Part shown: positions 2,294 through 25,842 of the stretch, in pieces | Layout of the letters: the number at the start of each line of letters is the position of its first letter | How positions within the stretch are numbered: position 1 is the first letter of the stretch | DNA from: a virus | DNA: 26,797 nt | Direction: 5' to 3' (one strand) | IMG/VR virus record: IMGVR_UViG_3300032282_003851 | Location: 1 to 26,797 of that record | Made by a program: the position numbers and the translations under genes | Notes under the pieces: generated by a model | Seen by the model: only the letters and a program-made list of their open reading frames with translations | Database searches by the model: none | Told to the model about the DNA's origin: nothing

Positions 2294-2965
2294 ATGGAGA
2301 CAAAATACCCAAATCTAAACGAATTTTTTAAGCGTAACCATGCCGAGCGCAACTGGGCGACAAGCGAGACCGTCTCGGGCGTCGGATCGGAGCTCCGCTT
2401 TACCCGCGACCTACATAAAAACCTCGTCTCGTTTATAAACAAAAACAAAGTCTCCTCGTTGCTCGATCTCCCTTGCGGAGATCTTAATTACATTAAACAT
2501 GTAATCGCGGAGATAAAGCTCGAGCGTCCTTTTGGGTATGTCGGAGCGGATATTGCGACCAATCTTATCGCCGAGAATATTATCAACTTTCCCGAGCTGG
2601 AGTTTCGGGCGCTTAATGTCGTCTCCGATCCTCTCCTCGCTTGCGACATGATCCTCGTCCGCGATTGCCTTGTACACTTGCCGACCGATCTTGTATTAAA
2701 TGCGTTGAAAAATCTATCAAAAACAAAGACAAAATTTATCGCGGTTACTACTTTTCCCGAGCACCCGATAAACGTCGAGCTCTCCGCGCTGGGGAGCTGG
2801 AGGACTTTAAACCTTTGCGCCGAGCCCTTTAATTTGCCCGAGCCGCTCGATATAATCGTCGAAAATTGCGCCGAGTATGGAGGAGAGTATAAGGATAAGT
2901 CTCTCGGAGTATGGTCGCCCTCTCAAATAAGAGAAGCAATCTCCGCCGCCGCGTCGAGCCGCTGA
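2294..2965 (+). CDS. Class I SAM-dependent methyltransferase, glycan-cluster type
   Basis: A 223-residue Rossmann methyltransferase. The SAM-binding motif I is LLDLPCGD (56-63), the acidic end of beta-2 is in GADIATN (84-90), and a motif DCLVHLP follows beta-4 (124-130). The N-terminal phrase WATSETVSGVGSELRFT (21-37) and the later GSWRTLNLCAEPFNLPEPL are hallmarks of a family commonly found among glycosyltransferases, thought to methylate sugars. It lacks any DNA methyltransferase motif (no DPPY/NPPF or PC loop), so I would not call it a restriction-evasion enzyme. It follows TerL by 12 bases on the same strand and converges on the minus-strand GT4 gene, overlapping its 3' end by 43 bases. 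Confidence 0.85.
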   Translation: METKYPNLNEFFKRNHAERNWATSETVSGVGSELRFTRDLHKNLVSFINKNKVSSLLDLPCGDLNYIKHVIAEIKLERPFGYVGADIATNLIAENIINFPELEFRALNVVSDPLLACDMILVRDCLVHLPTDLVLNALKNLSKTKTKFIAVTTFPEHPINVELSALGSWRTLNLCAEPFNLPEPLDIIVENCAEYGGEYKDKSLGVWSPSQIREAISAAASSR

Positions 2966-3909
2966 ATCCAGTCCGTTAAATTGTAATTTTTTTCGATCTC
3001 CCGACGGATAATCGGAGCGATTAACTCGGCTTTCTTGCGATTGTAATACTTAAGAGCGTTAAAAATCTCGGCGTAACTTTCAAAGACGGACGACCCCTTT
3101 ACGATATGCGAGGGGATACCGTCTCGATTAAGGGCAAAGACGCGCAATCCGCTCGCTTGCGCCTCCAGTATCGCAAAAGACCCGCTCTCGCTGGGAGAGG
3201 GGACAAGGAGGCAATCGAAACGAGTATAAATATCCGCCGCGTCTTTTGGATCGACAAATCCCTTATAATAAAAGTTAAGAGTTTGAGAGGCGCGATTTAT
3301 AAACGCTTTGTAAAAATCGCTCTCGGGTACTCCTCGTCCGTAATAATGGAGCTCGTAATTATGGTCGGGATTAAGGGCGTTAAATTTATCGACCGCGTCA
3401 AAAAATGAGAGAGGGATCTTTTCGTCCGAGACGCGTCCGACGATACCGCAAATAAATTTACCTTGTCTCCGCTGGTTGCTCGGCTTGTATTTATTACAAT
3501 CGATACCGAGATTAATCGGGACGATAAGAATATCTCTCCAGCTTTGCGCCTTGCTTATCGGCTTATAATTTGAGATCGCGAGCTTTGGCTTTGGAAACTG
3601 GGAGACGTTAAACGCAAAGGAAAAAGCTCCATGTATAAACCAAACTCGGCGCGGGATCATGGAGAGCCAAATCTCCGAGCTCAAAAAAGGATCATGTATT
3701 ACGACAACCGAGTCGGGATATTGAGTTAATAAGATCCTCGAGAGCTCGTCCGTCGTTTTGTATGTTTTAAAATTCGAGTTTCCATAATTGAGACCGCCCT
3801 CGATGGCATAAAAAACGCTCTCAAAACGCGACCCCTTTACCCAGCAATCGACAAGACGCTCTCCTCCTCCGAAAAAAACTTTATGAGCGGTAATATGCAC
3901 GATCCTCAT
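2923..3909 (-). CDS. Glycosyltransferase family 4 (GT-B fold)
   Basis: A 328-residue retaining-type sugar transferase. The N-terminal Gly-rich loop FFGGGERLV (12-20) is the acceptor-side GT4 signature; the C-terminal half contains GIVGRVSDEK (155-164), followed by the donor-binding EX7E motif ESGSFAILE with Glu241 and Glu249. It probably transfers a sugar from a nucleotide sugar onto a surface glycan or onto a virion protein; the substrate cannot be read from sequence. It is the last gene of a three-gene minus-strand operon, its start overlapping the GT2 stop by 4 bases. Its stop lies inside the 3' end of the + strand methyltransferase gene. Codon and word use match the neighbouring phage genes, so it is not a recent import. 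Confidence 0.92.
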   Translation of the reverse strand: MRIVHITAHKVFFGGGERLVDCWVKGSRFESVFYAIEGGLNYGNSNFKTYKTTDELSRILLTQYPDSVVVIHDPFLSSEIWLSMIPRRVWFIHGAFSFAFNVSQFPKPKLAISNYKPISKAQSWRDILIVPINLGIDCNKYKPSNQRRQGKFICGIVGRVSDEKIPLSFFDAVDKFNALNPDHNYELHYYGRGVPESDFYKAFINRASQTLNFYYKGFVDPKDAADIYTRFDCLLVPSPSESGSFAILEAQASGLRVFALNRDGIPSHIVKGSSVFESYAEIFNALKYYNRKKAELIAPIIRREIEKNYNLTDWIQRLDAAAEIASLI

Positions 3910-4637
3910 AAGTACCTCGTATAAAGTTTTTGAGCTTGCTCGATCTTATGGTCGAGACCGTAACGGATTATCGTATTATTACCAGTATCTCGGCGATAAT
4001 AATAAATCGGATCGGATATCGGTACGACGCCGACGCCTCCGATTAACTCAAAGAGGCGATATATTAAAGCGACGTCCGTACAATTTACCAGCCAACAACC
4101 CGAAAAGATAAAGTCCTCCGCCGATAATAGCTTTACAAACTCCCAGCGACAAGATCTCGGAGCGGTCGCCCAAAAAGGGACGGAGGCAAAACGCCCCTCC
4201 TCAATTAATCCGCTGGGATATCGGACGAGCTGGTTAACCTCTCCAGTCTTAAGGTCGCTCCAGTTTCCATAAGTTAACCGAGCGCCTCCTTTATACGCCT
4301 CCGCAATAACGTCGAGGCAACTCGGAGAGATCATGTCGTCGAGGTCTATAAACAAAACGACGTCGGTATCGTTTCCCGAGTATCGTATCGCCTCGATCCC
4401 TCTCCAGCGAGAGAAAGCCGCGCCGTAATTTTGATCGTTATTTATGATCGATATCATATTTTTGAAAGGAGAGCTCTCGGCAAAGGATCGGAGCTTGCTC
4501 TCGGTCGTATCGGTCGAGCCGTCGTTTATTACATAGATAAAAACCTCATGATCCGCCGCCGCGCTGGTTATACTATTAAGGCAATCCGCCGCCCAGCTCT
4601 CGCAATTATAACCAGTAATGACGATTTTAAACCTCAT
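3906..4637 (-). CDS. Glycosyltransferase family 2 (GT-A fold)
   Basis: A 243-residue inverting-type sugar transferase. It begins with the usual first strand (IVITGYNCESW, 5-15), has the nucleotide-binding NDGSTD at 38-43, the QNYGAAFSRWRGIE helix, and the metal-binding DxD as LFIDLDD ending at 101. A conserved tail with PISDPIYYYRRDTGN resembles the acceptor region of bacterial surface-polysaccharide enzymes. No membrane helix is visible, so it is likely cytoplasmic. It overlaps both neighbours by 4 bases (ATGA), meaning the three genes are translationally coupled and probably act on one glycan. Confidence 0.93.
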   Translation of the reverse strand: MRFKIVITGYNCESWAADCLNSITSAAADHEVFIYVINDGSTDTTESKLRSFAESSPFKNMISIINNDQNYGAAFSRWRGIEAIRYSGNDTDVVLFIDLDDMISPSCLDVIAEAYKGGARLTYGNWSDLKTGEVNQLVRYPSGLIEEGRFASVPFWATAPRSCRWEFVKLLSAEDFIFSGCWLVNCTDVALIYRLFELIGGVGVVPISDPIYYYRRDTGNNTIIRYGLDHKIEQAQKLYTRYL

Positions 4638-5113
4638 ATTAAAACGATTGCGGTCTTATCCTCGTCCGTTAAGATCTCCGAGACGGGTTTGTTAAACTTT
4701 CGGCGTATTGTTAAGGCGAGCTCCAGCTCCGAGAGACGGTTTGTATCGTCGATAAGGATCGGGCAATCTAAAAAGAAACGATCCGCGTACTTAAGAAACC
4801 CCGAGCGCCCGATAATTGCGGGAGGAGCGTCGATAATAAGGAGATCGTATTTTTGCGGGAGGAGGTCGATAAATTGCGGCTCGTACCAGCCGTCGACGAT
4901 CGGAGCAAATATGTACTTTATATTCGAGTACTTTCCGACATACTCGGTATCATGCTCGACGCAAATAACTTTAAACCGCTTTGCAAGCTCATGAGATCCC
5001 GATCCGCTCCCCAGCTCGACGATTGTACTCCCCTCCGCGATATTCTCGACGATCCAGTTATAAACCGCCGCGCCGATCGCCCAGCCTCCGAGATTATTTT
5101 TGTCGTGCTCCAT
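4634..5113 (-). CDS. Small class I methyltransferase of the glycan operon
   Basis: A 159-residue Rossmann protein: motif I IVELGSGSGSHELAK (31-45), acidic SAM-ribose contact in ICVEHD (50-55), and the beta-4 motif DLLIIDAPP (90-98) followed by GRSGFL. These match compact methyltransferases that sit in surface-glycan clusters. It is the first gene of the minus-strand operon, coupled to the GT2 by an ATGA overlap. Upstream of its ATG is a hairpin followed by five Ts in the transcription direction (5121-5153), so expression may be attenuated. A different start downstream is unlikely because the N-terminal helix (NNLGGWAIGAAVYNW) looks part of the fold. Confidence 0.85.
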   Translation of the reverse strand: MEHDKNNLGGWAIGAAVYNWIVENIAEGSTIVELGSGSGSHELAKRFKVICVEHDTEYVGKYSNIKYIFAPIVDGWYEPQFIDLLPQKYDLLIIDAPPAIIGRSGFLKYADRFFLDCPILIDDTNRLSELELALTIRRKFNKPVSEILTDEDKTAIVLI

Positions 5114-14274: not shown

Positions 14275-15354
14275 ATGGAAAAGCTATTAACAAAAAAGGA
14301 GCTCGCAAAGCTCAAAACCGCCGCAAACAACTCGATCTCTCTTGCTTTCGATATGGTCGAAAGCGTACTCGAGAGCGCCGTTAACGAGCTCCTCGCTCAT
14401 GAGATCGATAAGGTTGTCGGCATAATGCCGTCGGGAGATCAGATCCCAGTTACCCCAGCCGATAAAACGTCGGGGATAATATTACTCGCGCTCGGACATG
14501 CTTATTATGGCGAAATGGCTGCAAATCTCGCGGGCTCGATCCGTTACTCGGATAAAGATATCCCGATTCATTTGGTTTATCATGGCAACGCGCTCGATCA
14601 TTTGGGGCAAGATAAGCTCCGCCTTTTTACCAGTATCGCGCAAGCTCCAGCGGAGAGCTTTACAAAGGGCGGTAAAACGGCATACTTTAAAGCAAAGACC
14701 TATCTTTACGACTTAAGTCCGTACGATAAAACGCTTTACCTCGACGTCGACATGATCCTTTTCGGCAACCGTCGCGCCTCCGACTTTATCGCCGCGCTGG
14801 ACGGGGTCGACTTTGCGATCCAAAACCGCGACGCGATCGAGCTCTCCTCAATTAAAGAGGGCGACAAGCCTCCTTTTTATCTTTGGGCGGACGTTGCCTC
14901 AATTAAAAAGGCGTACGACTTAACCAGCGGCAAACTTTACGGCCTACACTCCGAGTTAATGTACTTTGAAAAAAATCCAAAAATGGAGGCTTTTTTTAAT
15001 GAGGTTAAAGAGATTTACGAGCGTCCTAAAATGGAGGCTCGCGAGTTCGCTGGAGATATCGCGGACGAGCTGGCTTTTGCGGTTGCAATGCTTAAGACGG
15101 GCGTTAAACCTCATGTCGAGCCGTACTCTCCCGTCTACTGGAGAAAGCTCGACGGTCGTAATGGAGTGCCGCACCGTATTAATGATCTCGGCGCGAAATT
15201 TTTTGCGTACTCCGTCGGCGGTAATGTGCAACCTCCGCAAATGGTCGACATTTATAACCTCATGGCAAAGGCTTACATGAGAGCCGTCGGCGTCTCCCGA
15301 GTTTGGGCGCTGAAAAACAAAAAGAACTTTATTAAAGAGCGTCAATCCTTATGA
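14275..15354 (+). CDS. GT8-like GT-A glycosyltransferase
   Basis: A 359-residue protein whose residues 66-330 fit a nucleotide-sugar transferase: a first strand GIILLALGHAYYGEMAANL (67-85), the donor-site AYFKAKTYLYDLSPYDKTLY (136-155) and the metal-binding LDVDMILF (156-163, DVD at 157-159), as in glycogenin/galactosyltransferase-type GT8 enzymes. The first 60 residues form an extra helical domain. It sits between tail-tip genes and the portal, overlapping the portal start by 4 bases, so it is co-expressed with virion parts. It may glycosylate a virion protein or host glycan. It is separate from the minus-strand glycan operon but uses the same codon style. The family is fairly sure; the substrate is unknown. 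Confidence 0.78.
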   Translation: MEKLLTKKELAKLKTAANNSISLAFDMVESVLESAVNELLAHEIDKVVGIMPSGDQIPVTPADKTSGIILLALGHAYYGEMAANLAGSIRYSDKDIPIHLVYHGNALDHLGQDKLRLFTSIAQAPAESFTKGGKTAYFKAKTYLYDLSPYDKTLYLDVDMILFGNRRASDFIAALDGVDFAIQNRDAIELSSIKEGDKPPFYLWADVASIKKAYDLTSGKLYGLHSELMYFEKNPKMEAFFNEVKEIYERPKMEAREFAGDIADELAFAVAMLKTGVKPHVEPYSPVYWRKLDGRNGVPHRINDLGAKFFAYSVGGNVQPPQMVDIYNLMAKAYMRAVGVSRVWALKNKKNFIKERQSL

Positions 15355-17330
15355 GTGCACAACAACAAAAACCAACTCCAGCGCAAGAGGCGGCGGAGTA
15401 TTTATTAAGCGGCAAAAGACACGCGGGTTATACGGAGTCCGTAAAGATTTACGAGGCTTTGCGTATTCATATCGAGGGTCTTTATCCCGATCAATTAATC
15501 GCAACGCGTCGCCCAAACGAGAGCGAGAAAATTTGGAGATTTCGCAAAGACATTTACCAGCCGATAACAAAAGACACGCCAAACCGCGTTATAACATCGC
15601 TCGGCAAGATCCGTCGCTCTCCTGACTGGTCGATTAAATATCCCGACGCTCCCGCAAACTCAAAGATCGCGGAGGGCGAGCTTTTATCCGATTACCTCGA
15701 GAAAAATTATCCGTATCATACCAGTATAACAAACTGGGTATTTAAGATCGCGCTTAAGAGTATGCTCGGAGATCCGAACGCGCTCGCGGTTATTTTGCCG
15801 AGTAATATTTACGCTCCCGCTGGAGAGTACGTTAAGCCGATCGCGTTAATCTTTAACTCTCCGAACGTAATCGCGTACGAGGAGGGGCGCTTTGCAATCC
15901 TTAAGTACAAAGGATTTGACAACGATAAAGGCGGACGCGAAAATTATTTGATCGTTACGCCGACCTCGATCGAGTGGACGTACATAACAAATAAAAAAAC
16001 GATCGTAATCGCGGACTCATACGCTCATGATCTCGGTTATTTGCCCGTTATCCGTCTCGGCGGTACGTTTTGCGTTAATCATGGAGCGCAAACGATTTAC
16101 GAGAGTTACCTCTCTCCAATGCTCCCCTATCTTAACGAGGCGGCTCGAGAGTACTCCGATCATCAAGCGGAGATCCTCCAGCATATTTTTTCCGAGACGT
16201 GGGAGTGGGCGTCGCAAGGTTGTAATACTTGCAAAAACGAGCTCGGGATCTCGGTCGGACAAATTAAAAACCCGAAAAACGTAACGGGCAAATCCTTAAT
16301 AAAGTGTCCCGATTGCTCGGGGACTGGGATCTCGCCTTACAATAAGCTCGTAATCCGCCCAGCAAAAACAAATCTCGGAGAGCAACCCGCGCCGATCCCG
16401 CCGAAAGGCTTTATCGAGAAAAATACCGAGATCGCCCGTTTGCAAGACGAGCGGATCGAAAAACACCGATATCGCGCTCTCGCCTCGATTAACTTTCAAT
16501 TTCTCGACAAAGCTCCGCAATCCGAAAGCGGGATCGCAAAAGAGGTCGATCGGGACGAGCTTAATAATTTCGTTTATAATGTCGCCGAGACGATCGTCGA
16601 GGATCTCGACTTTATAATTAAAGCGATAACGGATTATCGATATATGGATCTTATCCCAAATACCGCCCAGCGTTACGAGATACTCCCGACGATCCCAGTC
16701 CCTCAAAAATTTGATCTCGTTAATCCGAGTTACTTAATCGACGAGTACGGCAAGGCAAAGACCGCAAATATGAGCGGGGTCGTTTTGTCGGCAATGGAGG
16801 CGGAGTTTGTCGCAAAAAAATTTATCGCCGAGCCCGAGCTCCTTGCGGTCTTGCAATTAACTTACAAGCTCGATCCGATCCCGAGCAAAACGACGGACGA
16901 AAAAATGAGCATGTATCAAAATAAAGCCGTAACGCAAGAGGCTTATATCGTCTCGAGCAATATTAACGCCTTTATAAAGCGGGCTCTTTTGGAGGATCGC
17001 GATTTTATGAGCAAGCCAACGGGCGAGCAAGTTGCAACGCTGGAGAGTTTCGCGCAAGAGGTAATCGATACATACGAAAATAATAAGGACTTAATACCGA
17101 CGCCCGACGGAGCTCCGAGCGCCGCCGATCTCAAATTTACGGTCGGAGGACTTACAAGCATGATCGAGATCGCGAAAGCGGTCGCGTCGGGTTTATATCC
17201 GCTTAACGCGGCGGTCGCTCTTGTTCAAGATCGTTTCGGATTAACGGAGGACGAGGCAAGAGCCCAGCTCGGCAATCCTCAAATAATAACAGATCCAAAT
17301 AAAGTTGACAACGTCTTAAAATTAACGTAA
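15351..17330 (+). CDS. Portal protein with zinc-ribbon insert
   Basis: A 659-residue protein opening the head block. The N-terminal third (EKIWRFRKDIYQPITKDTPN, then ITSLGKIRRSPDW) and the stem/clip region are of the portal type found in Bacteroidetes phages, and it is followed by the MuF protein, scaffold and capsid genes as expected. Residues 291-294 (CNTC) and 319-322 (CPDC, followed by SGTG) form a four-Cys zinc-ribbon-like insert, resembling a DnaJ half-site. The C-terminal region has long helices and ends with DRFGLTEDEARAQLGN. It forms the ring at one capsid vertex through which DNA enters and leaves. The ATG overlaps the preceding stop by 4 bases. Confidence 0.88.
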   Translation: MSAQQQKPTPAQEAAEYLLSGKRHAGYTESVKIYEALRIHIEGLYPDQLIATRRPNESEKIWRFRKDIYQPITKDTPNRVITSLGKIRRSPDWSIKYPDAPANSKIAEGELLSDYLEKNYPYHTSITNWVFKIALKSMLGDPNALAVILPSNIYAPAGEYVKPIALIFNSPNVIAYEEGRFAILKYKGFDNDKGGRENYLIVTPTSIEWTYITNKKTIVIADSYAHDLGYLPVIRLGGTFCVNHGAQTIYESYLSPMLPYLNEAAREYSDHQAEILQHIFSETWEWASQGCNTCKNELGISVGQIKNPKNVTGKSLIKCPDCSGTGISPYNKLVIRPAKTNLGEQPAPIPPKGFIEKNTEIARLQDERIEKHRYRALASINFQFLDKAPQSESGIAKEVDRDELNNFVYNVAETIVEDLDFIIKAITDYRYMDLIPNTAQRYEILPTIPVPQKFDLVNPSYLIDEYGKAKTANMSGVVLSAMEAEFVAKKFIAEPELLAVLQLTYKLDPIPSKTTDEKMSMYQNKAVTQEAYIVSSNINAFIKRALLEDRDFMSKPTGEQVATLESFAQEVIDTYENNKDLIPTPDGAPSAADLKFTVGGLTSMIEIAKAVASGLYPLNAAVALVQDRFGLTEDEARAQLGNPQIITDPNKVDNVLKLT

Positions 17331-17333
17331 AGC

Positions 17334-18944
17334 ATGTCGACCGCCCCCGAGCAATTAATTAAAGACCTCGTCGATAAGATTAAGACGAGCGTATCGGGTT
17401 TCGATCAATCGTTACCAGTTACCCAGCGCCAAATTATGAGCGAGGTCGAGTTGCTTATTAAGGGACTGGAGACAAATAACTCGGGTAATATTATCGCGAA
17501 CGCTCAAAACTTAAGGACGGTCGGGATAATACAACAAAAGCTCCAGTCGATAATTAGCTCTCCCGAGTATCGTCGATCAGTAAAGGATTATCTCGGCAAT
17601 TTTAACGACGTCGCCAAATTAAACGATAAGTATTACTCGGCTCTCTCGGATAATTATACAAGACCGCCGATCGTCGCCGAGCTCCAAAAGCAAACGATCG
17701 ACGCGACGATTAACTCCTTAACGGCGGCGGGTATATCTCAAAGCGTAACGAGCAAGGTGCAAGATATCCTCCGCGTTAATATTACGACGGGAGCAAGTTA
17801 CGCGGATCTCTCCCAGCAACTCCGCGACTTTTTAACGCAAAACAAAACGGGAGAGGGAGCGCTCGAGAGGTACACGAAACAAATTACGACCGACGCGCTT
17901 AATCAATACTCGGCGCAATACTCGAAAGCGGTCTCCGACGATCTCGGCTTTGAGTGGTTTCGGTATACTGGAGCGGAGATTGAGGACTCGCGTCCTTTTT
18001 GCAAAGCAATGATCGATAAAAAGTACTTCCACAAATCCGAGATCCCGAAACTCCTCGAGGGCAAGTTTCCCGAGTTCGCGGATAATAAGGGAGTAATTTA
18101 CGATAAAACTGGTCTCCCCGCTGGCATGGTTGCGGGGACGTCTCCCGAGACTTTTTTTACATATCGCGGCGGGTATAATTGCGGACATCAAATCGTCGGA
18201 GTGCCGACCGACTCCGTCCCTCCCGAGTACCGAAAGGCTTTGCTTTTTGGAAAGCTCGACGAGCCGATCGGTATAAAAACAAAACCCGCGAAAGCTCCAG
18301 CGCCGACAAACTTACCTCCCGACGCTCAAAAGGCGCTCGAGTTGCTTAAAAACTTTAAACCAGCAAAAACGATTAAGGAGGCGACAAAATTCGCAAACGA
18401 CGCAAAGCTCGCAAAGACCCCGATCGATTATAAGCTCGCAAAAGGAGCGGCGGCTTTGCAATACGTTAATGAGCTTAATGCCGCCTTATTAAAATTAAAG
18501 AGCGAGGGGCTCGAGGTTTACGATAAAGTATTTTTGTCAAACTCTCCGACAAAGACTTTCCGAGCTCAAAACTGGACGAGATACCTTTCAAATGGAGATA
18601 TACAAATGAGCCTCCAGCTTAATATCGGAAAAGACTTATCTCTTGCAAATTATAAGCGCGTCGCCGATTCAGGCTGGAGTATCTCGAGATCAATAAACGA
18701 TACGATCAATCATGAATACGGACATTTTTTAACAAAGCCGCCAACGAGAGCGGAGTACGATCGGATCGATCCTATACTTATGAAAATTAAGATCCCAGTA
18801 TCGGAGTATGGAGCGACTCAAGGCTGGGAGGCTCTCGCTGAAATTTACGCGCTCTATAAGAGAGAGGGCGTTGCTCCTCTCGAGCAAGACTGGATCGATT
18901 TTTTTAATAAATACTCGGCTAAAATAAAAATCCCAAATAAATGA
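17334..18944 (+). CDS. MuF-type minor head protein fused to a zinc metallopeptidase-like domain
   Basis: A 536-residue protein of at least two parts. Residues 1-295 are a phage head morphogenesis (SPP1 gp7/MuF) domain: helical first half, then WFRYTGAEIEDSRPFCKAM (208-226) and GGYNCGHQIVGVP (279-291), the Cys/His-bearing end typical of the family. A Pro/Ala/Lys linker (about 311-330) leads to a C-terminal domain with INHEYGHFLT: HEYGH at 460-464 is the HExxH zinc-peptidase motif, with a downstream WEALAEIYALY (498-508) whose Glu499 or Glu503 can be the third zinc ligand as in gluzincins. MuF domains in other phages carry toxin or effector domains in this position. Here the domain could process head proteins or enter the host with DNA. 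It overlaps the next gene by 4 bases. Confidence 0.82.
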   Translation: MSTAPEQLIKDLVDKIKTSVSGFDQSLPVTQRQIMSEVELLIKGLETNNSGNIIANAQNLRTVGIIQQKLQSIISSPEYRRSVKDYLGNFNDVAKLNDKYYSALSDNYTRPPIVAELQKQTIDATINSLTAAGISQSVTSKVQDILRVNITTGASYADLSQQLRDFLTQNKTGEGALERYTKQITTDALNQYSAQYSKAVSDDLGFEWFRYTGAEIEDSRPFCKAMIDKKYFHKSEIPKLLEGKFPEFADNKGVIYDKTGLPAGMVAGTSPETFFTYRGGYNCGHQIVGVPTDSVPPEYRKALLFGKLDEPIGIKTKPAKAPAPTNLPPDAQKALELLKNFKPAKTIKEATKFANDAKLAKTPIDYKLAKGAAALQYVNELNAALLKLKSEGLEVYDKVFLSNSPTKTFRAQNWTRYLSNGDIQMSLQLNIGKDLSLANYKRVADSGWSISRSINDTINHEYGHFLTKPPTRAEYDRIDPILMKIKIPVSEYGATQGWEALAEIYALYKREGVAPLEQDWIDFFNKYSAKIKIPNK

Positions 18945-19147
18945 GAAAAGAAACCCTCTCCGACGGATCTTTTACCCTTATCTCCGATCCTCCTCCTTGT
19001 ATCGATTGCAAGTTTGCAAACTTAAAAGCTCGGACATGTAAAGCGTTTCCCGACGGCATACCTCGCGAGATAATATCAGGAGATAACCAGCATACAAAAC
19101 CCCTCCCCGATCAAAAAAATAAAGTCGTATTTGAGCCGATCAAATAA
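18941..19147 (+). CDS. Small Cys-rich phage protein, probable metal binder
   Basis: A 68-residue protein with C20-x2-C23-x9-C33 and His51: PPPCIDCKFANLKARTCKAF, followed by PDGIPREIISGDNQH. The phrase CKAFPDGIP...I..G...H..P is one I know from conserved small proteins in many phages and bacteria, of unknown function. The three Cys plus His could bind one zinc. It overlaps the MuF stop by ATGA and is the last gene before the scaffold promoter. Confidence 0.75.
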   Translation: MRKETLSDGSFTLISDPPPCIDCKFANLKARTCKAFPDGIPREIISGDNQHTKPLPDQKNKVVFEPIK

Positions 19148-19242: not shown

Positions 19243-20115
19243 ATGGCAAATAATGTCGGCGAATTAATCGGAGAAATTTTCGGACTGGTCGGGATCGACG
19301 CAACGGACGAAAAATACAAGCCTCTTGTATCAATAACAACCCCGATCGACGCGGACACCGCCGACAAGATCTCGAAAAATATCCTTTCGATTGACACCGC
19401 AAAAATGAGCTCCCAGTTAAAAGCTCATTTTAAGGCGCAAACTCTTAACGGAGTGGACGCGCAACATGAGGAGCTCGCGACCGAGTACGGACTCGATCCA
19501 GCGGACGCCGCCGAGCTTAAGTCGATTAAAGATACTTTCGAGCGTAATAAAAAACTAATCGCGAAAGTAAAAGCCAACGTCGAAAAGTTAAACGCTGGGA
19601 AAGGAGATACCGCAAAGCTGGTCGAGGAAAACCGAAAGCTAAACGACGCGATCCTCGCAAGTAAAGCGGATTTCGATAAGAAACTCGCGGACATACAAGC
19701 GAACAAAGAGAGCGAGCTTAACGATTACGCGATTATGTCTCATTTGCGCTCGCTTAAATATGCAAACGAAAACGTCGACGCGGATATTAACGCGTTAACC
19801 GCAAAATCTGTAATACAAAACGCTCTCGCCTCCAAAAAAATCGGAGTTAAAAGAGACGCGACAAATACTTTGAGATTGTATCAGTTAGAAAATCCCGAGC
19901 TCGACTATCTCGAGAATCACAAACCGATCTCATTTGCCGACCTTGCCTCAAAAGAGTTGCAAGCGAAGAAAATGCTCGCAATAACCGACCCGAGCCGAGC
20001 GACGGGTAAAACTGGCAAAGACGCCGCTCCCGCTGGAGGTAAAAACGACGCCGCTCCCGATAACTCGGAGGCGATCTCTTTTTACGATCAGCAACTCGCC
20101 CAGTTTGAGCGATAA
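19243..20115 (+). CDS. Capsid scaffold protein
   Basis: A 290-residue, strongly charged, mostly helical protein directly before the capsid gene. Residues about 95-165 form a coiled coil (LIAKVKANVEKLNAGKGD, then LVEENRKLNDAIL), and the C-terminus is a flexible Gly/Ala/Pro-rich linker (GKTGKDAAPAGGKNDAAPDN) ending in a short helix (ISFYDQQLAQFER) that probably binds the capsid shell. This is the normal architecture of phage scaffolds. No protease motif (Ser-His or ClpP-like) is present in it. It starts a transcription unit under the promoter at 19188. Confidence 0.82.
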   Translation: MANNVGELIGEIFGLVGIDATDEKYKPLVSITTPIDADTADKISKNILSIDTAKMSSQLKAHFKAQTLNGVDAQHEELATEYGLDPADAAELKSIKDTFERNKKLIAKVKANVEKLNAGKGDTAKLVEENRKLNDAILASKADFDKKLADIQANKESELNDYAIMSHLRSLKYANENVDADINALTAKSVIQNALASKKIGVKRDATNTLRLYQLENPELDYLENHKPISFADLASKELQAKKMLAITDPSRATGKTGKDAAPAGGKNDAAPDNSEAISFYDQQLAQFER

Positions 20116-20163: not shown

Positions 20164-21321
20164 ATGTTAGGATTTGCACCCGCTTTGTTACAACATATGA
20201 AAGTTGTCGCCGAGCAAAATTACGCGGGGATTAAAATTACCCCCAGCGGCTTTTTCAAAGCCCTTATCGAAAATAACCCAGCTTTACGCGTTGTCGGAGC
20301 TGGAGGCGAGAGTATCGACCCGTTAAAACTTTCAACGAAAGCGGGACATATTCGCGACGTAAAATTAAAATACCTCCCTCGTATTACCGACTCGCAAATC
20401 GGGACGGAGGATAATTGCGACAACGATCAAATTTTCCAGTATAACGAAATGGATCTCGCCGCGCCGAGCTTCCGTAAATTTTCGTTTTTCCTCGACTGGC
20501 GCTTTGTTGAGCGTTATCAGGAGGAGGCGAGCAAACTCGTTACTACTGGCAACCCGAGTACGTCGGTATTGCAAGAGCTTGTCGATCAAATTCAGCACGC
20601 GGTTAATGGTCTTGTCGTTTCAATGGATAAGGCTTTGCTTGCTCAAACCGTTTTCGGGACAAACGTAACGACGGGTAATAATCTTGCAAAGTCGATTAAT
20701 ATCAATAAGGACGGCAGCGTCCTCGACCTTTCGCAAGGATTGATCGAGATATTAAGCGACGCGCAAGAGAATGAGTTCAACGGAGAGCTGATCCTTGTCG
20801 GAAACGGACTTTTTAACAAATTCGAGATCGCAAAAGCGGGCGGAGCGTTAAACGGGACGGGTAACGCTATGAATTTGGCGGCGTTAAGCGGGTATAAATG
20901 GTATAACGATATTAACTCCGCAACCGCTATTAATTACGGAGCGAACGCGGTCGCCGCTTTTGCGAAAGGGACGGTCGGTTATGTCGATATTGACCGTTAT
21001 GTCGCTTGGAAAACTGGCAAATTTGGGAGCTCATGGTTTACGCAAATCATGTTACCAATAACCAGCGGCGACGGAGTTCAAACCATGACTAATTTTAACC
21101 TCCAAATAATCGAGAAAGATTGCCCGAGCGAAATGTACGACGGATATAATCAATCGAGCGTCGATCGCGGTTATCAGGTTATTATATCAAAGCGTTTCGG
21201 CTTGTTTCAGCAACCGAGCAACTCTTATCAGGCTGGAGATCGTCTTGTTAACAATAACGGATCTTTGCTTTATAATATTGCGAACGATTGCGACCCTTGC
21301 GAGGGCGGAGCGCTTAAATAG
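20164..21321 (+). CDS. Major capsid protein
   Basis: A 385-residue protein 48 bases after the scaffold, in the expected place. It has the N-terminal helix (LLQHMKVVAEQNYAG), a PRITDSQIGTEDNCD loop, a long helix-strand body (VVSMDKALLAQTVFG) and late segments such as YVDIDRYVAWKTGKFGSSWF and TMTNFNLQIIEKDCPSEMYD that fit an HK97-type shell protein. Cys85, and Cys376/Cys379 in the terminal NDCDPCEGG, are unusual for a capsid protein. Codon use shows more TTCG and CGT than neighbours, in keeping with high expression. A GC hairpin lies downstream. Confidence 0.85.
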   Translation: MLGFAPALLQHMKVVAEQNYAGIKITPSGFFKALIENNPALRVVGAGGESIDPLKLSTKAGHIRDVKLKYLPRITDSQIGTEDNCDNDQIFQYNEMDLAAPSFRKFSFFLDWRFVERYQEEASKLVTTGNPSTSVLQELVDQIQHAVNGLVVSMDKALLAQTVFGTNVTTGNNLAKSININKDGSVLDLSQGLIEILSDAQENEFNGELILVGNGLFNKFEIAKAGGALNGTGNAMNLAALSGYKWYNDINSATAINYGANAVAAFAKGTVGYVDIDRYVAWKTGKFGSSWFTQIMLPITSGDGVQTMTNFNLQIIEKDCPSEMYDGYNQSSVDRGYQVIISKRFGLFQQPSNSYQAGDRLVNNNGSLLYNIANDCDPCEGGALK

Positions 21322-24637: not shown

Positions 24638-24868
24638 ATGACAACGACGGAGGATCGTATCGAAAGCGCGATCGCCTTTATTAGTGGCGATTTTTTAACT
24701 ATGTTTATTTTATGGATTCATTTTGACGCGATCGATATCGTTTTAAAGGTAGCGGCGACGGGCGTACTCGGAGGCGTCGGCGGCTTTGCTGGCTTACTGG
24801 GAAAGGATCTTTATAACATAACAAAAGACAAGATCTCAAAATGGAAAAACAAGGAGACGCCCGAGTAA
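24638..24868 (+). CDS. Second small membrane protein, holin candidate
   Basis: A 76-residue protein starting 3 bases after the previous stop. A hydrophobic part (19-35) is followed by a Gly-rich one (VAATGVLGGVGGFAGLLG, 38-55), then a basic tail (KDKISKWKNKETPE). Two membrane passes with a charged C-terminus are typical of class II holins. It overlaps the DUF5675 gene by 28 bases, tying it to lysis. Confidence 0.6.
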   Translation: MTTTEDRIESAIAFISGDFLTMFILWIHFDAIDIVLKVAATGVLGGVGGFAGLLGKDLYNITKDKISKWKNKETPE

Positions 24869-25365
24869 TAAACGACGCGAAAATTATCGCAATCGTTCAA
24901 AGGATTATCGCAAACGGAGACGCGGTCGATCTCTCCGTCCCGAGAAACAATATCGGAGTAATGTTTACCCGAAAGGGCGAGAGCTGGTCGCGCTTTTGTT
25001 ATACGCTCGAGGACGAGATCCGATCCGAGTTTGTAAAGATTTTCGGCGCGACATGTATCGAGGCTGGCTTGTATCAAATGAGGGTTACATACTCCCCAAA
25101 ATTTAAGCGCGAGACCGTCGAGATTACTCCGCTTTTTAAAACGTCGACAAAGTTTACAGGCTTGCGCGTACATGGAGGTAATACGGAGGCGGACTCTCAT
25201 GGCTGCATACTGGTCGCGTTTAATATTAACCCGCAAAAAACTCGGATCTTTGACTCCGCCGAGCGAGCTTTTACCCAGTTTGTAAAAGAGAGAAAGGGAG
25301 GGATCTTGCTTGTTGAAAATAAGCAACTTTCGTCGGACGGTAATTTTGTCGATTATTTATTATAA
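24841..25365 (+). CDS. DUF5675 / L,D-transpeptidase-like lysis candidate
   Basis: A 174-residue protein with the conserved order CYTLEDEIR (53-61), IEAGLYQMRVTYSPKFKRE (73-91), TGLRVHGGNT (106-115) and DSHGCILV (118-125). The HGGNT...D.GC pattern is the signature of the DUF5675 family, whose His and Cys resemble the L,D-transpeptidase site; these proteins occur in phage lysis regions and may act on peptidoglycan. Here His111 and Cys122 are both present. Residues 1-40 are an extension relative to the core; ATG 24961 (MFTRKGES) is an alternative start. No signal peptide, so export would need the holins. No other endolysin is seen in the window. Confidence 0.78.
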   Translation: MEKQGDARVINDAKIIAIVQRIIANGDAVDLSVPRNNIGVMFTRKGESWSRFCYTLEDEIRSEFVKIFGATCIEAGLYQMRVTYSPKFKRETVEITPLFKTSTKFTGLRVHGGNTEADSHGCILVAFNINPQKTRIFDSAERAFTQFVKERKGGILLVENKQLSSDGNFVDYLL

Positions 25366-25461: not shown

Positions 25462-25842
25462 ATGCAAAAGGAGTATAATGTTTGCCTCGCGATCGCAAAT
25501 TATTTACGCTTACAATACCCGAGCGTCGAGTTTCATTTTGACCTTGCGGGAAACAACTTAAGCGAGGCGGCGCGTAATAAAAATAAGGCGATCCAAAAGC
25601 GGAGAGGCTTTCCCGATTTACAGATCCTCGAGCCTCGAGATCGCTTTGCTGGTTTGTTTATCGAAATTAAAGCACCTGACACGCGATTACAAAAGGAGTC
25701 GGGAGTTTGGGCGTCCGACCATATTCTCGAGCAAGCGGCTTATCTTTTGAGGTTAACGCAAAGAGGGTATCTCGCGGAGTTTGGCGTCGGCTTTGACGAG
25801 TGCAAACGAATTATCGATAATTACTTATCCCTCCCAAAATGA
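25462..25842 (+). CDS. VRR-NUC nuclease
   Basis: A 126-residue PD-(D/E)xK nuclease of the VRR-NUC family: RRGFPDLQIL (47-56, Asp52), LFIEIKAPD (65-73, Glu68 and Lys70), then QAAYLLRLTQRGYLAEFGVGFDE (split over 91-112) with Gln91. These are the catalytic acids, lysine and trailing helix of the family. Stand-alone phage VRR-NUC proteins are thought to cut DNA junctions or branched DNA during replication or packaging. It follows the structured RNA and is coupled to the spanin-like genes by an ATGA overlap, an odd place among lysis genes. Confidence 0.9.
   Translation: MQKEYNVCLAIANYLRLQYPSVEFHFDLAGNNLSEAARNKNKAIQKRRGFPDLQILEPRDRFAGLFIEIKAPDTRLQKESGVWASDHILEQAAYLLRLTQRGYLAEFGVGFDECKRIIDNYLSLPK

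What the first reader, a model, noticed from the sequence alone, without database searches (positions are those of the whole stretch)
17334..18944. MuF minor head protein carries a C-terminal HEYGH metallopeptidase-like domain
The first 295 residues are head morphogenesis protein; after a Pro/Ala/Lys linker, residues 330-536 contain HEYGH (460-464) and a downstream WEALAEIYALY. MuF proteins in Firmicutes prophages are known to carry toxin domains at this place. A zincin version in a Bacteroidetes phage could be an effector injected with the DNA or the missing head maturation protease, as no other protease is encoded near the capsid gene.
Basis: partly seen in the sequence, partly recalled or inferred. 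Interest (0 to 1): 0.75.

Follow-up and report, generated by a model that had tools for sequence, protein, structure and literature searches.

The report
Phage head protein with protease warhead
A phage head protein carries on its end a zinc protease domain of a toxin-like family, and next to it lies a tiny gene that accompanies this protease in many unrelated phages and may be its safety catch.

Summary
ORF 17334-18944 (536 aa) is a MuF-type head protein (residues ~1-295), a Pro/Lys/Ala linker, and a C-terminal domain with HEYGH (460-464) and WEALAE.
The tail is an M34-like zincin (the family of PPEP-1/Zmp1 and lethal factor). Homologues on other phage MuF and portal proteins keep H460, E461, H464, Y492, E499 and E503. 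The AlphaFold model's best solved-structure rows are M34, at modest Z.
It is not the head maturation protease: 88 of 101 distinct ORFs of this MuF family (best-80 lists) have no C-terminal domain. Besides the window, 12 have one: one the same zincin, the rest other HExxH, ADP-ribosyltransferase, CdiA-type or polyvalent-associated domains. The best reading is an exchangeable effector, inferred to be packaged and injected.
New here: the overlapping 68-aa Cys-rich gene (18941-19147) lies beside the zincin in 18 of 26 testable phage zincin proteins and in none of 95 testable MuF loci without it. I propose it as the zincin's inhibitor. Against this, 8 of 26 lack it, and solo homologues occur in 19 of 395 bacterial genomes, none seen beside a zincin. 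Activity, packaging and inhibition are untested.

The parts
17334..18944 (+). CDS, 536 aa: MuF-type minor head protein with C-terminal M34-like zincin domain
17334..18218 (+). MuF-type body, residues 1-295, containing the conserved RGGYNCGHQ stretch near its end
   Evidence: relatives; profile match to classic MuF
18219..18335 (+). Pro/Lys/Ala-rich linker, residues 296-334
   Evidence: sequence
18336..18941 (+). M34-like zincin domain, residues 335-536
18711..18725 (+). HEYGH, residues 460-464: predicted zinc ligands H460 and H464, catalytic E461
18807..18842 (+). YGATQGWEALAE, residues 492-503: invariant Y492, E499 (predicted third zinc ligand), E503
18941..19147 (+). 68-aa Cys-rich protein (C20, C23, C33, H51 and the ..P.GIP.. 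stretch conserved); starts on ATGA overlapping the MuF-zincin stop; proposed cognate inhibitor of the zincin
15351..17330 (+). portal protein (context)
   Evidence: phrog_7376, E 2.1e-18
19243..20115 (+). 290-aa coiled-coil, scaffold-like by position (context); homologues in the relatives
20164..21321 (+). 385-aa major-capsid-like protein by position (context); homologues in the relatives

Best explanation
The tail is an M34-like zinc metallopeptidase effector anchored to a MuF-type head protein. Shown by sequence: the zincin signature, its homology to zincin tails of other phage MuF and portal proteins, its interchangeability with ART, nuclease and other tails, and its linkage to the small gene. 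Inferred: the MuF body places a few copies at the portal vertex inside the head, the tail enters the cell with the DNA, and it cleaves a host protein early in infection (host takeover, counter-defence or competition). Also inferred: the overlapping 68-aa CCCH-type protein, presumably made from the same transcript, binds and silences the zincin in the producing cell until it is packaged, as immunity proteins do for other MuF toxins. Zincin plus small gene behave as a cassette that is exchanged between unrelated head proteins.
For: 1) Catalytic residues: in A8 (window plus 21 other phage zincin domains) H460, E461, H464, Y492, E499 and E503 are invariant. In the 30 zincin ORFs listed, HExxH is in 30 of 30 and Y-x6-E-x2-A-E in 29 of 30 (the 30th has Cys for Ala). 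These rows were found with patterns from these motifs and include near-duplicates, so the count is biased. 2) Fold: the A5 profile hits lethal factor chains in the PDB at E 5e-6 to 2.7e-4 and a PPEP-like ATLF-domain chain only at 0.47; the profile is weighted by three bacterial proteins. The model from A8 (pLDDT 71.1, pTM 0.67) gives M34 entries in all of the top 43 VIA-align rows: lethal factor catalytic part Z up to 8.1, PPEP-1/Zmp1 6.7, PPEP-3 6.4; first unrelated row 5.5. 3) Modularity: of 101 distinct MuF ORFs (window family), 13 have long tails. They are M34-like zincin (window, L008), other HExxH (L002, L079, L157, and L094 with LPD3), ADPrib_exo_Tox (L038, L040, L045, above cut-off), CdiA_C (L095 above cut-off, L093 weak), ART-like by eye (L096) and LPD3 below cut-off (L111). 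4) Of 23 phage zincin ORFs scanned with Pfam, 14 carry Phage_Mu_F above cut-off and 3 a portal family (L187, L194, L198); 6 carry neither. L184 adds an ART after the zincin. 5) Small gene: adjacent in 18 of 26 testable phage zincin proteins, against 0 of 95 distinct MuF ORFs without this zincin that have at least 300 bp of DNA downstream (Fisher p 1.2e-15, sequences not independent). One copy each in 8 of 8 whole records searched, adjacent to the zincin or, in Jenst, one gene away. Reverse search in named phages: both testable lineages have a zincin upstream (lotta8; Jenst). 6) Cassette exchange: L008 and lotta8-2 tails are 39% identical over 241 aa (E 2e-47) while their MuF bodies are not alike (E 0.77).
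Against: No activity, packaging or injection was shown. Foldseek against the PDB found nothing at E 0.001 or better, and the VIA-align Z values lie in a range that the tool itself calls middling. For the small gene: 8 of 26 zincin proteins lack it (L183, L184, L201, L202, L205, L208, L210, L213). The family is broader than the zincin: 19 of 395 genomes of the phylum of a Chitinophagaceae genome carry it, 0 of 19 with a zincin in the roughly 1.5 kb fetched on each side, and only 2 of those 19 are among the 48 genomes with an A8 zincin, about what chance gives (2.3). Most phages with the pair show no sign of being temperate: tyrosine integrase in 0 of 10 records and 1 of 10 (Jenst; the window had none), serine recombinase in 0 of 10 (records may be fragments), and lotta8-2 belongs to phages isolated as lytic (PMC7077304, section 3.2). 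Lysogen immunity is therefore an unlikely reason for the small gene in those phages, and Jamet 2017 found toxin-bearing MuF in no virulent phage of its set.
Confidence: 0.6

Rival explanations
1. The zincin is an autoprocessing peptidase (as proposed for polyvalent proteins): it cuts the MuF body from its own tail or from other cargo before packaging or after injection.
For: Iyer 2017 (PMC5512222, passages read) proposes this for zincins of polyvalent proteins and cites P1 DdrB processing. In L184 the zincin lies between MuF and an ART domain; L190 carries ARTs upstream of it. A Pro/Lys/Ala linker precedes the domain here.
Against: In the window no other cargo follows the zincin, and many homologues are also MuF-zincin with nothing after it. 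Bacterial homologues without a head protein exist.
Confidence: 0.2
2. It is the missing head maturation protease that cleaves scaffold or capsid.
For: No other protease was recognised among the window ORFs scanned.
Against: 88 of 101 distinct ORFs of the family lack any C-terminal domain though scaffold and capsid homologues persist in the family. lotta8-2 has a MuF-zincin and a separate gene annotated as PF00574 protease. Scaffold-type heads without a protease are known (SPP1, recalled).
Confidence: 0.03
3. The small Cys-rich protein is not an inhibitor but a folding or packaging partner, a substrate, or a minor structural part of zincin-bearing heads.
For: It occurs in apparently lytic phages and, solo, in bacterial genomes without a linked zincin. 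Its CCCH pattern suggests a small zinc site (inference).
Against: It follows zincins on MuF and on portal bodies alike and is absent from the 95 testable distinct MuF ORFs without this zincin, so it tracks the zincin and not the head. [quoted passage not shown] PMC5576092).
Confidence: 0.4
4. The domain is a degenerate or non-enzymatic remnant, for example a binding module.
For: None beyond the lack of activity data; the model is only moderately confident.
Against: The six invariant residues are kept in 22 of 22 aligned domains that share little else (mean column identity 20%).
Confidence: 0.05

Closest known systems
MuF polymorphic toxins of temperate phages (Jamet 2017, PMC5576092)
   Same: MuF body next to the portal gene, exchangeable C-terminal effector domains, metallopeptidase domains in 20% of 191 MuF toxins, small ORF downstream (89.4%) (passages read)
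   Different: This is a MuF body that Pfam does not recognise, related to Bacteroidota prophages. Most of the paired phages tested show no integrase. Here one defined small-protein family tracks one defined zincin family; the passages read do not name such a family.
Polyvalent proteins with zincin MPTase and MuF domains (Iyer 2017, PMC5512222)
   Same: Zincin domains with HExxH plus a downstream Glu in phage proteins; one was unified with lethal factor by HHpred there (passages)
   Different: The paper says its 12 MPTase clades are not specifically related to earlier defined clades; the present domain is M34-like by profile and by structure comparison. Whether it belongs to one of the 12 clades was not tested.
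Bxa, a MuF-ADP-ribosyltransferase of a Bacteroides prophage (PMC11699363)
   Same: Bacteroidota phage MuF with a C-terminal antibacterial enzyme and small cognate immunity proteins encoded next to it (passages)
   Different: Bxa is an ART; immunity is by an ADP-ribosyl hydrolase and Bsi. The passages seen name ART, deaminase and alarmone synthetase tails, not a zincin.
M34 peptidases: PPEP-1/Zmp1, PPEP-3, lethal factor catalytic domain
   Same: HExxH, downstream Tyr and Glu (roles recalled), best rows of the structural comparison
   Different: Low identity (12-19% in those rows); fused to a phage head protein; substrate unknown
Tox-ALF metallopeptidase with Imm-SuFu (Zhang 2012, PMC3482391)
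   Same: ALF-type zincin used as toxin domain in conflict systems
   Different: The table row seen lists PVC and T2SS carriers and Imm-SuFu, not MuF and not a CCCH small protein (passages)

Membership tests
M34-like (ATLF/PPEP) zincins | HExxH zinc-binding and catalytic motif | tested here: met
   HEYGH 460-464, invariant H, E, H in 22 of 22
M34-like (ATLF/PPEP) zincins | Downstream Glu zinc ligand with a Tyr 7 residues before it | tested here: met
   Y492 and E499 invariant in 22 of 22; that this spacing and these roles hold in PPEP-1 is recalled
M34-like (ATLF/PPEP) zincins | M34 fold | tested here: inconclusive
   Top 43 VIA-align rows all M34, Z up to 8.1, but Foldseek finds no PDB hit at E 0.001 and Pfam ATLF is not hit by the window itself; L213, L204, L202, L190 and L175 hit ATLF below cut-off
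M34-like (ATLF/PPEP) zincins | Zinc-dependent proteolysis | not testable with these tools
   bench assay needed
MuF polymorphic toxins | MuF domain encoded next to the portal gene | tested here: met
   portal directly upstream; MuF profile match E 7.4e-5, prob 62%; not called by Pfam for the window, weak in relatives
MuF polymorphic toxins | Variable C-terminal effector domains on one body | tested here: met
   13 of 101 distinct ORFs with long tails of several kinds
MuF polymorphic toxins | Small ORF (immunity candidate) immediately downstream | tested here: met
   ATGA-overlapping 68-aa ORF; linkage 18 of 26 vs 0 of 95
MuF polymorphic toxins | Carried by temperate phages | tested here: inconclusive
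   No tyrosine integrase and no serine recombinase in the window record, but it is a 26.8-kb record that may be a fragment
MuF polymorphic toxins | Toxicity and neutralisation by immunity protein | not testable with these tools
   needs expression tests
Head maturation protease | Present in phages sharing the same head gene set | tested here: not met
   no C-terminal domain in 88 of 101 distinct ORFs of the family

The most novel reading that the evidence does not exclude
A mobile two-gene module: an M34-like zincin warhead and a CCCH-type small inhibitor (conserved FPxGIP-like loop, perhaps a substrate mimic) travel together among the head proteins (MuF and portal) of unrelated, apparently often non-temperate phages. 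The inhibitor protects the cell or the assembling virion until injection. This would be a new class of zincin inhibitor and an injected protease used by lytic phages.
Probability: 0.4. Interest if true: 0.75.

Novelty: new variant of a known kind. Interest (0 to 1): 0.58.

Why it matters
MuF-linked effectors are known, but what the zincin ones do and how the producing cell tolerates them is open. The defined pair (zincin plus 68-aa protein) makes this directly testable, also in a cultured lytic phage (Flavobacterium phage lotta8). If the small protein inhibits the zincin, it gives a natural inhibitor scaffold for M34-type peptidases and a marker for finding injected proteases in metagenomic phages.

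Tried and rejected
Head maturation protease: rejected, see rivals. Pfam, PHROGs, PDB-sequence, viral-contig and phage searches with the bare tail gave nothing firm. Relatives came through a weak plasmid hit (E 0.5) that proved to carry the same signature, then through profiles. tblastn with that plasmid protein found no phage record and only itself among plasmids. Single-sequence AlphaFold gave a useless model (pLDDT 39.8) and was not used. Foldseek on PDB with the good model: no hit at E 0.001. Searching viral contigs with A4 found no confirmed relative; A6 was too divergent to search with. The capsid protein query found no viral relatives by single sequence. A strict reading of the 68-aa family as zincin-only was tested and rejected for cells. 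tblastn with another member (L191) found no phage records and three plasmid-collection records that I did not follow. tblastn with the lotta8-2 zincin found only lotta8 records, and with the L185 zincin no phage record. The homologue L216 lies at a contig edge and cannot be tested for a zincin.

Counting rules. The MuF family sample is what three viral searches and one genome search returned; two of the viral searches kept only the best 80 of 227 and of 293 relatives. Rows dropped before the 18-of-26 count: L189 (contig ends at the zincin), L094 and its copy L172 (weak zincin match, about 256 bp left), L097, L175, L176, L178 and L179 (bacterial; none has the small gene), duplicates (L001, L065, L180, L181, L182, L186, L199, L206, L209, L211, L212), the second zincin ORFs in L190 and L194, and L214 and L215 (found through the small gene). 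The 26 include the window, which seeded the small-gene search; without it 17 of 25, p 5.7e-15. The control is 101 distinct MuF ORFs less window, L008 and L094 = 98, of which 95 have at least 300 bp downstream.

Full report
Observation. The ORF at 17334-18944 encodes 536 aa. HEYGH lies at 460-464 and is the only HExxH in the window's six-frame ORFs of at least 60 aa; 0.0016 would be expected in this protein from composition. The ORF follows a portal gene (phrog_7376) and precedes a coiled-coil 290-aa gene and a 385-aa gene that stand where scaffold and capsid genes stand; homologues of these were found within 3 kb after the MuF gene in 134 and 116 of 170 loci (iterated search). The window is a 26,797-bp virus record. 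Its host is not known, but relatives of the MuF body lie in four Bacteroidota records (Chitinophagaceae, Prevotellaceae, Dysgonomonas, a Bacteroidetes MAG).

The body. Searches with the whole protein and with alignments of its N-terminal part found relatives that match residues 1 to about 300 only; two of these searches kept only the best 80 of 227 and of 293. In 170 sources (window and its copy L001 included) there are 101 distinct ORFs. 88 end within 39 residues of the conserved GGYNCGH-like stretch and 13 have long tails. The tails are M34-like zincin (window, L008), another HExxH type with weak M78 similarity (L002, L079, L157), HExxH plus LPD3 (L094), ADP-ribosyltransferase (L038, L040, L045; Pfam above cut-off), ART-like by eye only (L096), CdiA_C (L095 above cut-off, L093 weak), and LPD3 below cut-off (L111). 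A domain that most ORFs of the family lack, in phages with the same head genes, cannot be a general maturation protease. The MuF identity rests on gene order and on a profile match to classic MuF domains (E 7.4e-5, probability 62%); Pfam does not call it.

The tail. The bare tail had no family hit of note. A weak plasmid hit (E 0.5) showed the same HExGH ... YxxxxxxExxAE signature. Profiles then found bacterial proteins that by eye have signal peptides, of which L175 matches Pfam ATLF at 2e-5, below the cut-off. They also found tails of phage head proteins. Of 23 phage zincin ORFs scanned with Pfam, 14 carry Phage_Mu_F above the cut-off (L184, L185, L188, L191, L192, L193, L195, L196, L197, L200, L203, L205, L210, L213), three carry a portal family (L187, L194, L198) and six carry neither (L183, L190, L202, L204, L207, L208). 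L184 adds a C-terminal ART, and L190 has ART domains before the zincin. The window tail aligns with the MuF protein of L210 over 198 residues at 28% identity. In a 22-member alignment six residues are invariant, H460, E461, H464, Y492, E499 and E503, although mean column identity is only 20%.

The fold. AlphaFold on that alignment gave pLDDT 71.1 and pTM 0.67; the single-sequence attempt failed (39.8). Foldseek finds viral 'Matrixin' and two 'Minor capsid protein' models at E 3.7e-5 to 9.8e-4 but nothing significant in the PDB. VIA-align puts M34 entries in all of rows 1-43: lethal factor catalytic region Z 8.1, rmsd 4.5 over 161 residues; Zmp1 Z 6.7; PPEP-3 Z 6.4. The first unrelated row is at 5.5. 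The tool warns that Z near 8 may be a common arrangement; the agreement of fold, sequence profile and invariant residues is what I rely on. 'M34-like' is therefore a resemblance supported by three lines, not a proven membership.

The small gene. ORF 18941-19147 starts on the ATGA that contains the stop of the MuF-zincin gene. It has no Pfam or NCBIfam name, and its PHROG (33375, E 9.1e-7) is of unknown function. Its homologues lie directly after the zincin ORF in 18 of 26 testable distinct phage zincin proteins, on MuF and on portal bodies; measured between stop-to-stop frames the distance runs from 84 bp of overlap to 172 bp apart. None is found in the fetched loci of the 98 other distinct MuF ORFs, 95 of which have at least 300 bp of DNA downstream (Fisher p 1.2e-15, with the caution that sequences are related). 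In 8 of 8 whole records searched, the family occurs exactly once. The reverse search from the small protein in the phage collection gave seven records of three lineages. Flavobacterium phage lotta8-2 has, directly upstream, a protein annotated with PF04233 that ends in the zincin. Brevibacillus phage Jenst has a zincin-matching virion protein as the second gene upstream, the only match in its 126-kb genome. The third is a contig edge. L008 and lotta8-2 share tail (39% identity over 241 aa) and small gene but not the MuF body, so tail and small gene appear to move together. Twenty-one members share C20, C23, C33, A35, I40, P41 and H51.

Results against the immunity reading. Eight of 26 zincin proteins lack the small gene. 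In 395 genomes of the phylum of a Chitinophagaceae genome the family occurs in 19, 0 of 19 with a zincin in the fetched 1.5 kb or less on each side, and only 2 of these 19 genomes are among the 48 with an A8 zincin (2.3 expected by chance). So the family has another life in cells. Tyrosine integrase: 0 of 10 records and 1 of 10 (Jenst has one; the window, lotta8-2 and seven others have none). Serine recombinase: 0 of 10 records including the window. Records may be fragments. lotta8-2 falls among the lytic isolates of PMC7077304 (section 3.2 read in full; other passages). If these phages are virulent, the small protein would protect the infected producer cell or the assembling particle, not a lysogen.

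Literature. [quoted passage not shown] PMC5512222 (passages): zincin MPTases and MuF are hubs of polyvalent proteins; autoprocessing or effector roles are proposed. PMC11699363 (passages): Bxa, a Bacteroides MuF-ART with immunity proteins. PMC3482391 (passages): ALF-type toxin domains with Imm-SuFu. My searches (listings only beyond the papers named) showed no paper that I recognised as describing an M34-like zincin on MuF or portal proteins with this small partner; supplements could not be read, so Jamet's own tables may hold such tails.

Verdict. A real zincin domain, of the known kind 'effector on a MuF head protein', M34-like, with a newly noticed partner gene. The most valuable product is the testable pair.

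Noticed in passing
window 2294-5113: A methyltransferase (phrog_3382) on + followed by two glycosyltransferases on - (Pfam group 1 at 2926-3909, family 2 at 3909-4637) and a further - ORF, between terminase and tail genes; possible virion or host-surface glycan modification.
   Followed up: partly
window 14275-15354: By eye a glycosyltransferase family 8-like protein directly upstream of the portal gene; no Pfam or PHROG hit at E 0.01.
   Followed up: no
L194 4207-8089: Portal-zincin, then the small Cys-rich gene, then a second ORF matching the zincin profile: one small gene between two zincins.
   Followed up: no
L190 714-6482: Two consecutive large ORFs that both match the zincin profile, the second with ART domains, followed by one small Cys-rich gene.
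   Followed up: no
L002, L079, L157: A second, different HExxH tail (weak Peptidase_M78) on the same MuF family, without the 68-aa gene in the available DNA.
   Followed up: no
L217-L235: The 68-aa family as a solo small protein in 19 of 395 genomes of the phylum of a Chitinophagaceae genome, function unknown.
   Followed up: partly
window 24841-25365 and 25462-25842: DUF5675 protein (E 6.2e-16) and a VRR-NUC-like nuclease (below cut-off).
   Followed up: no
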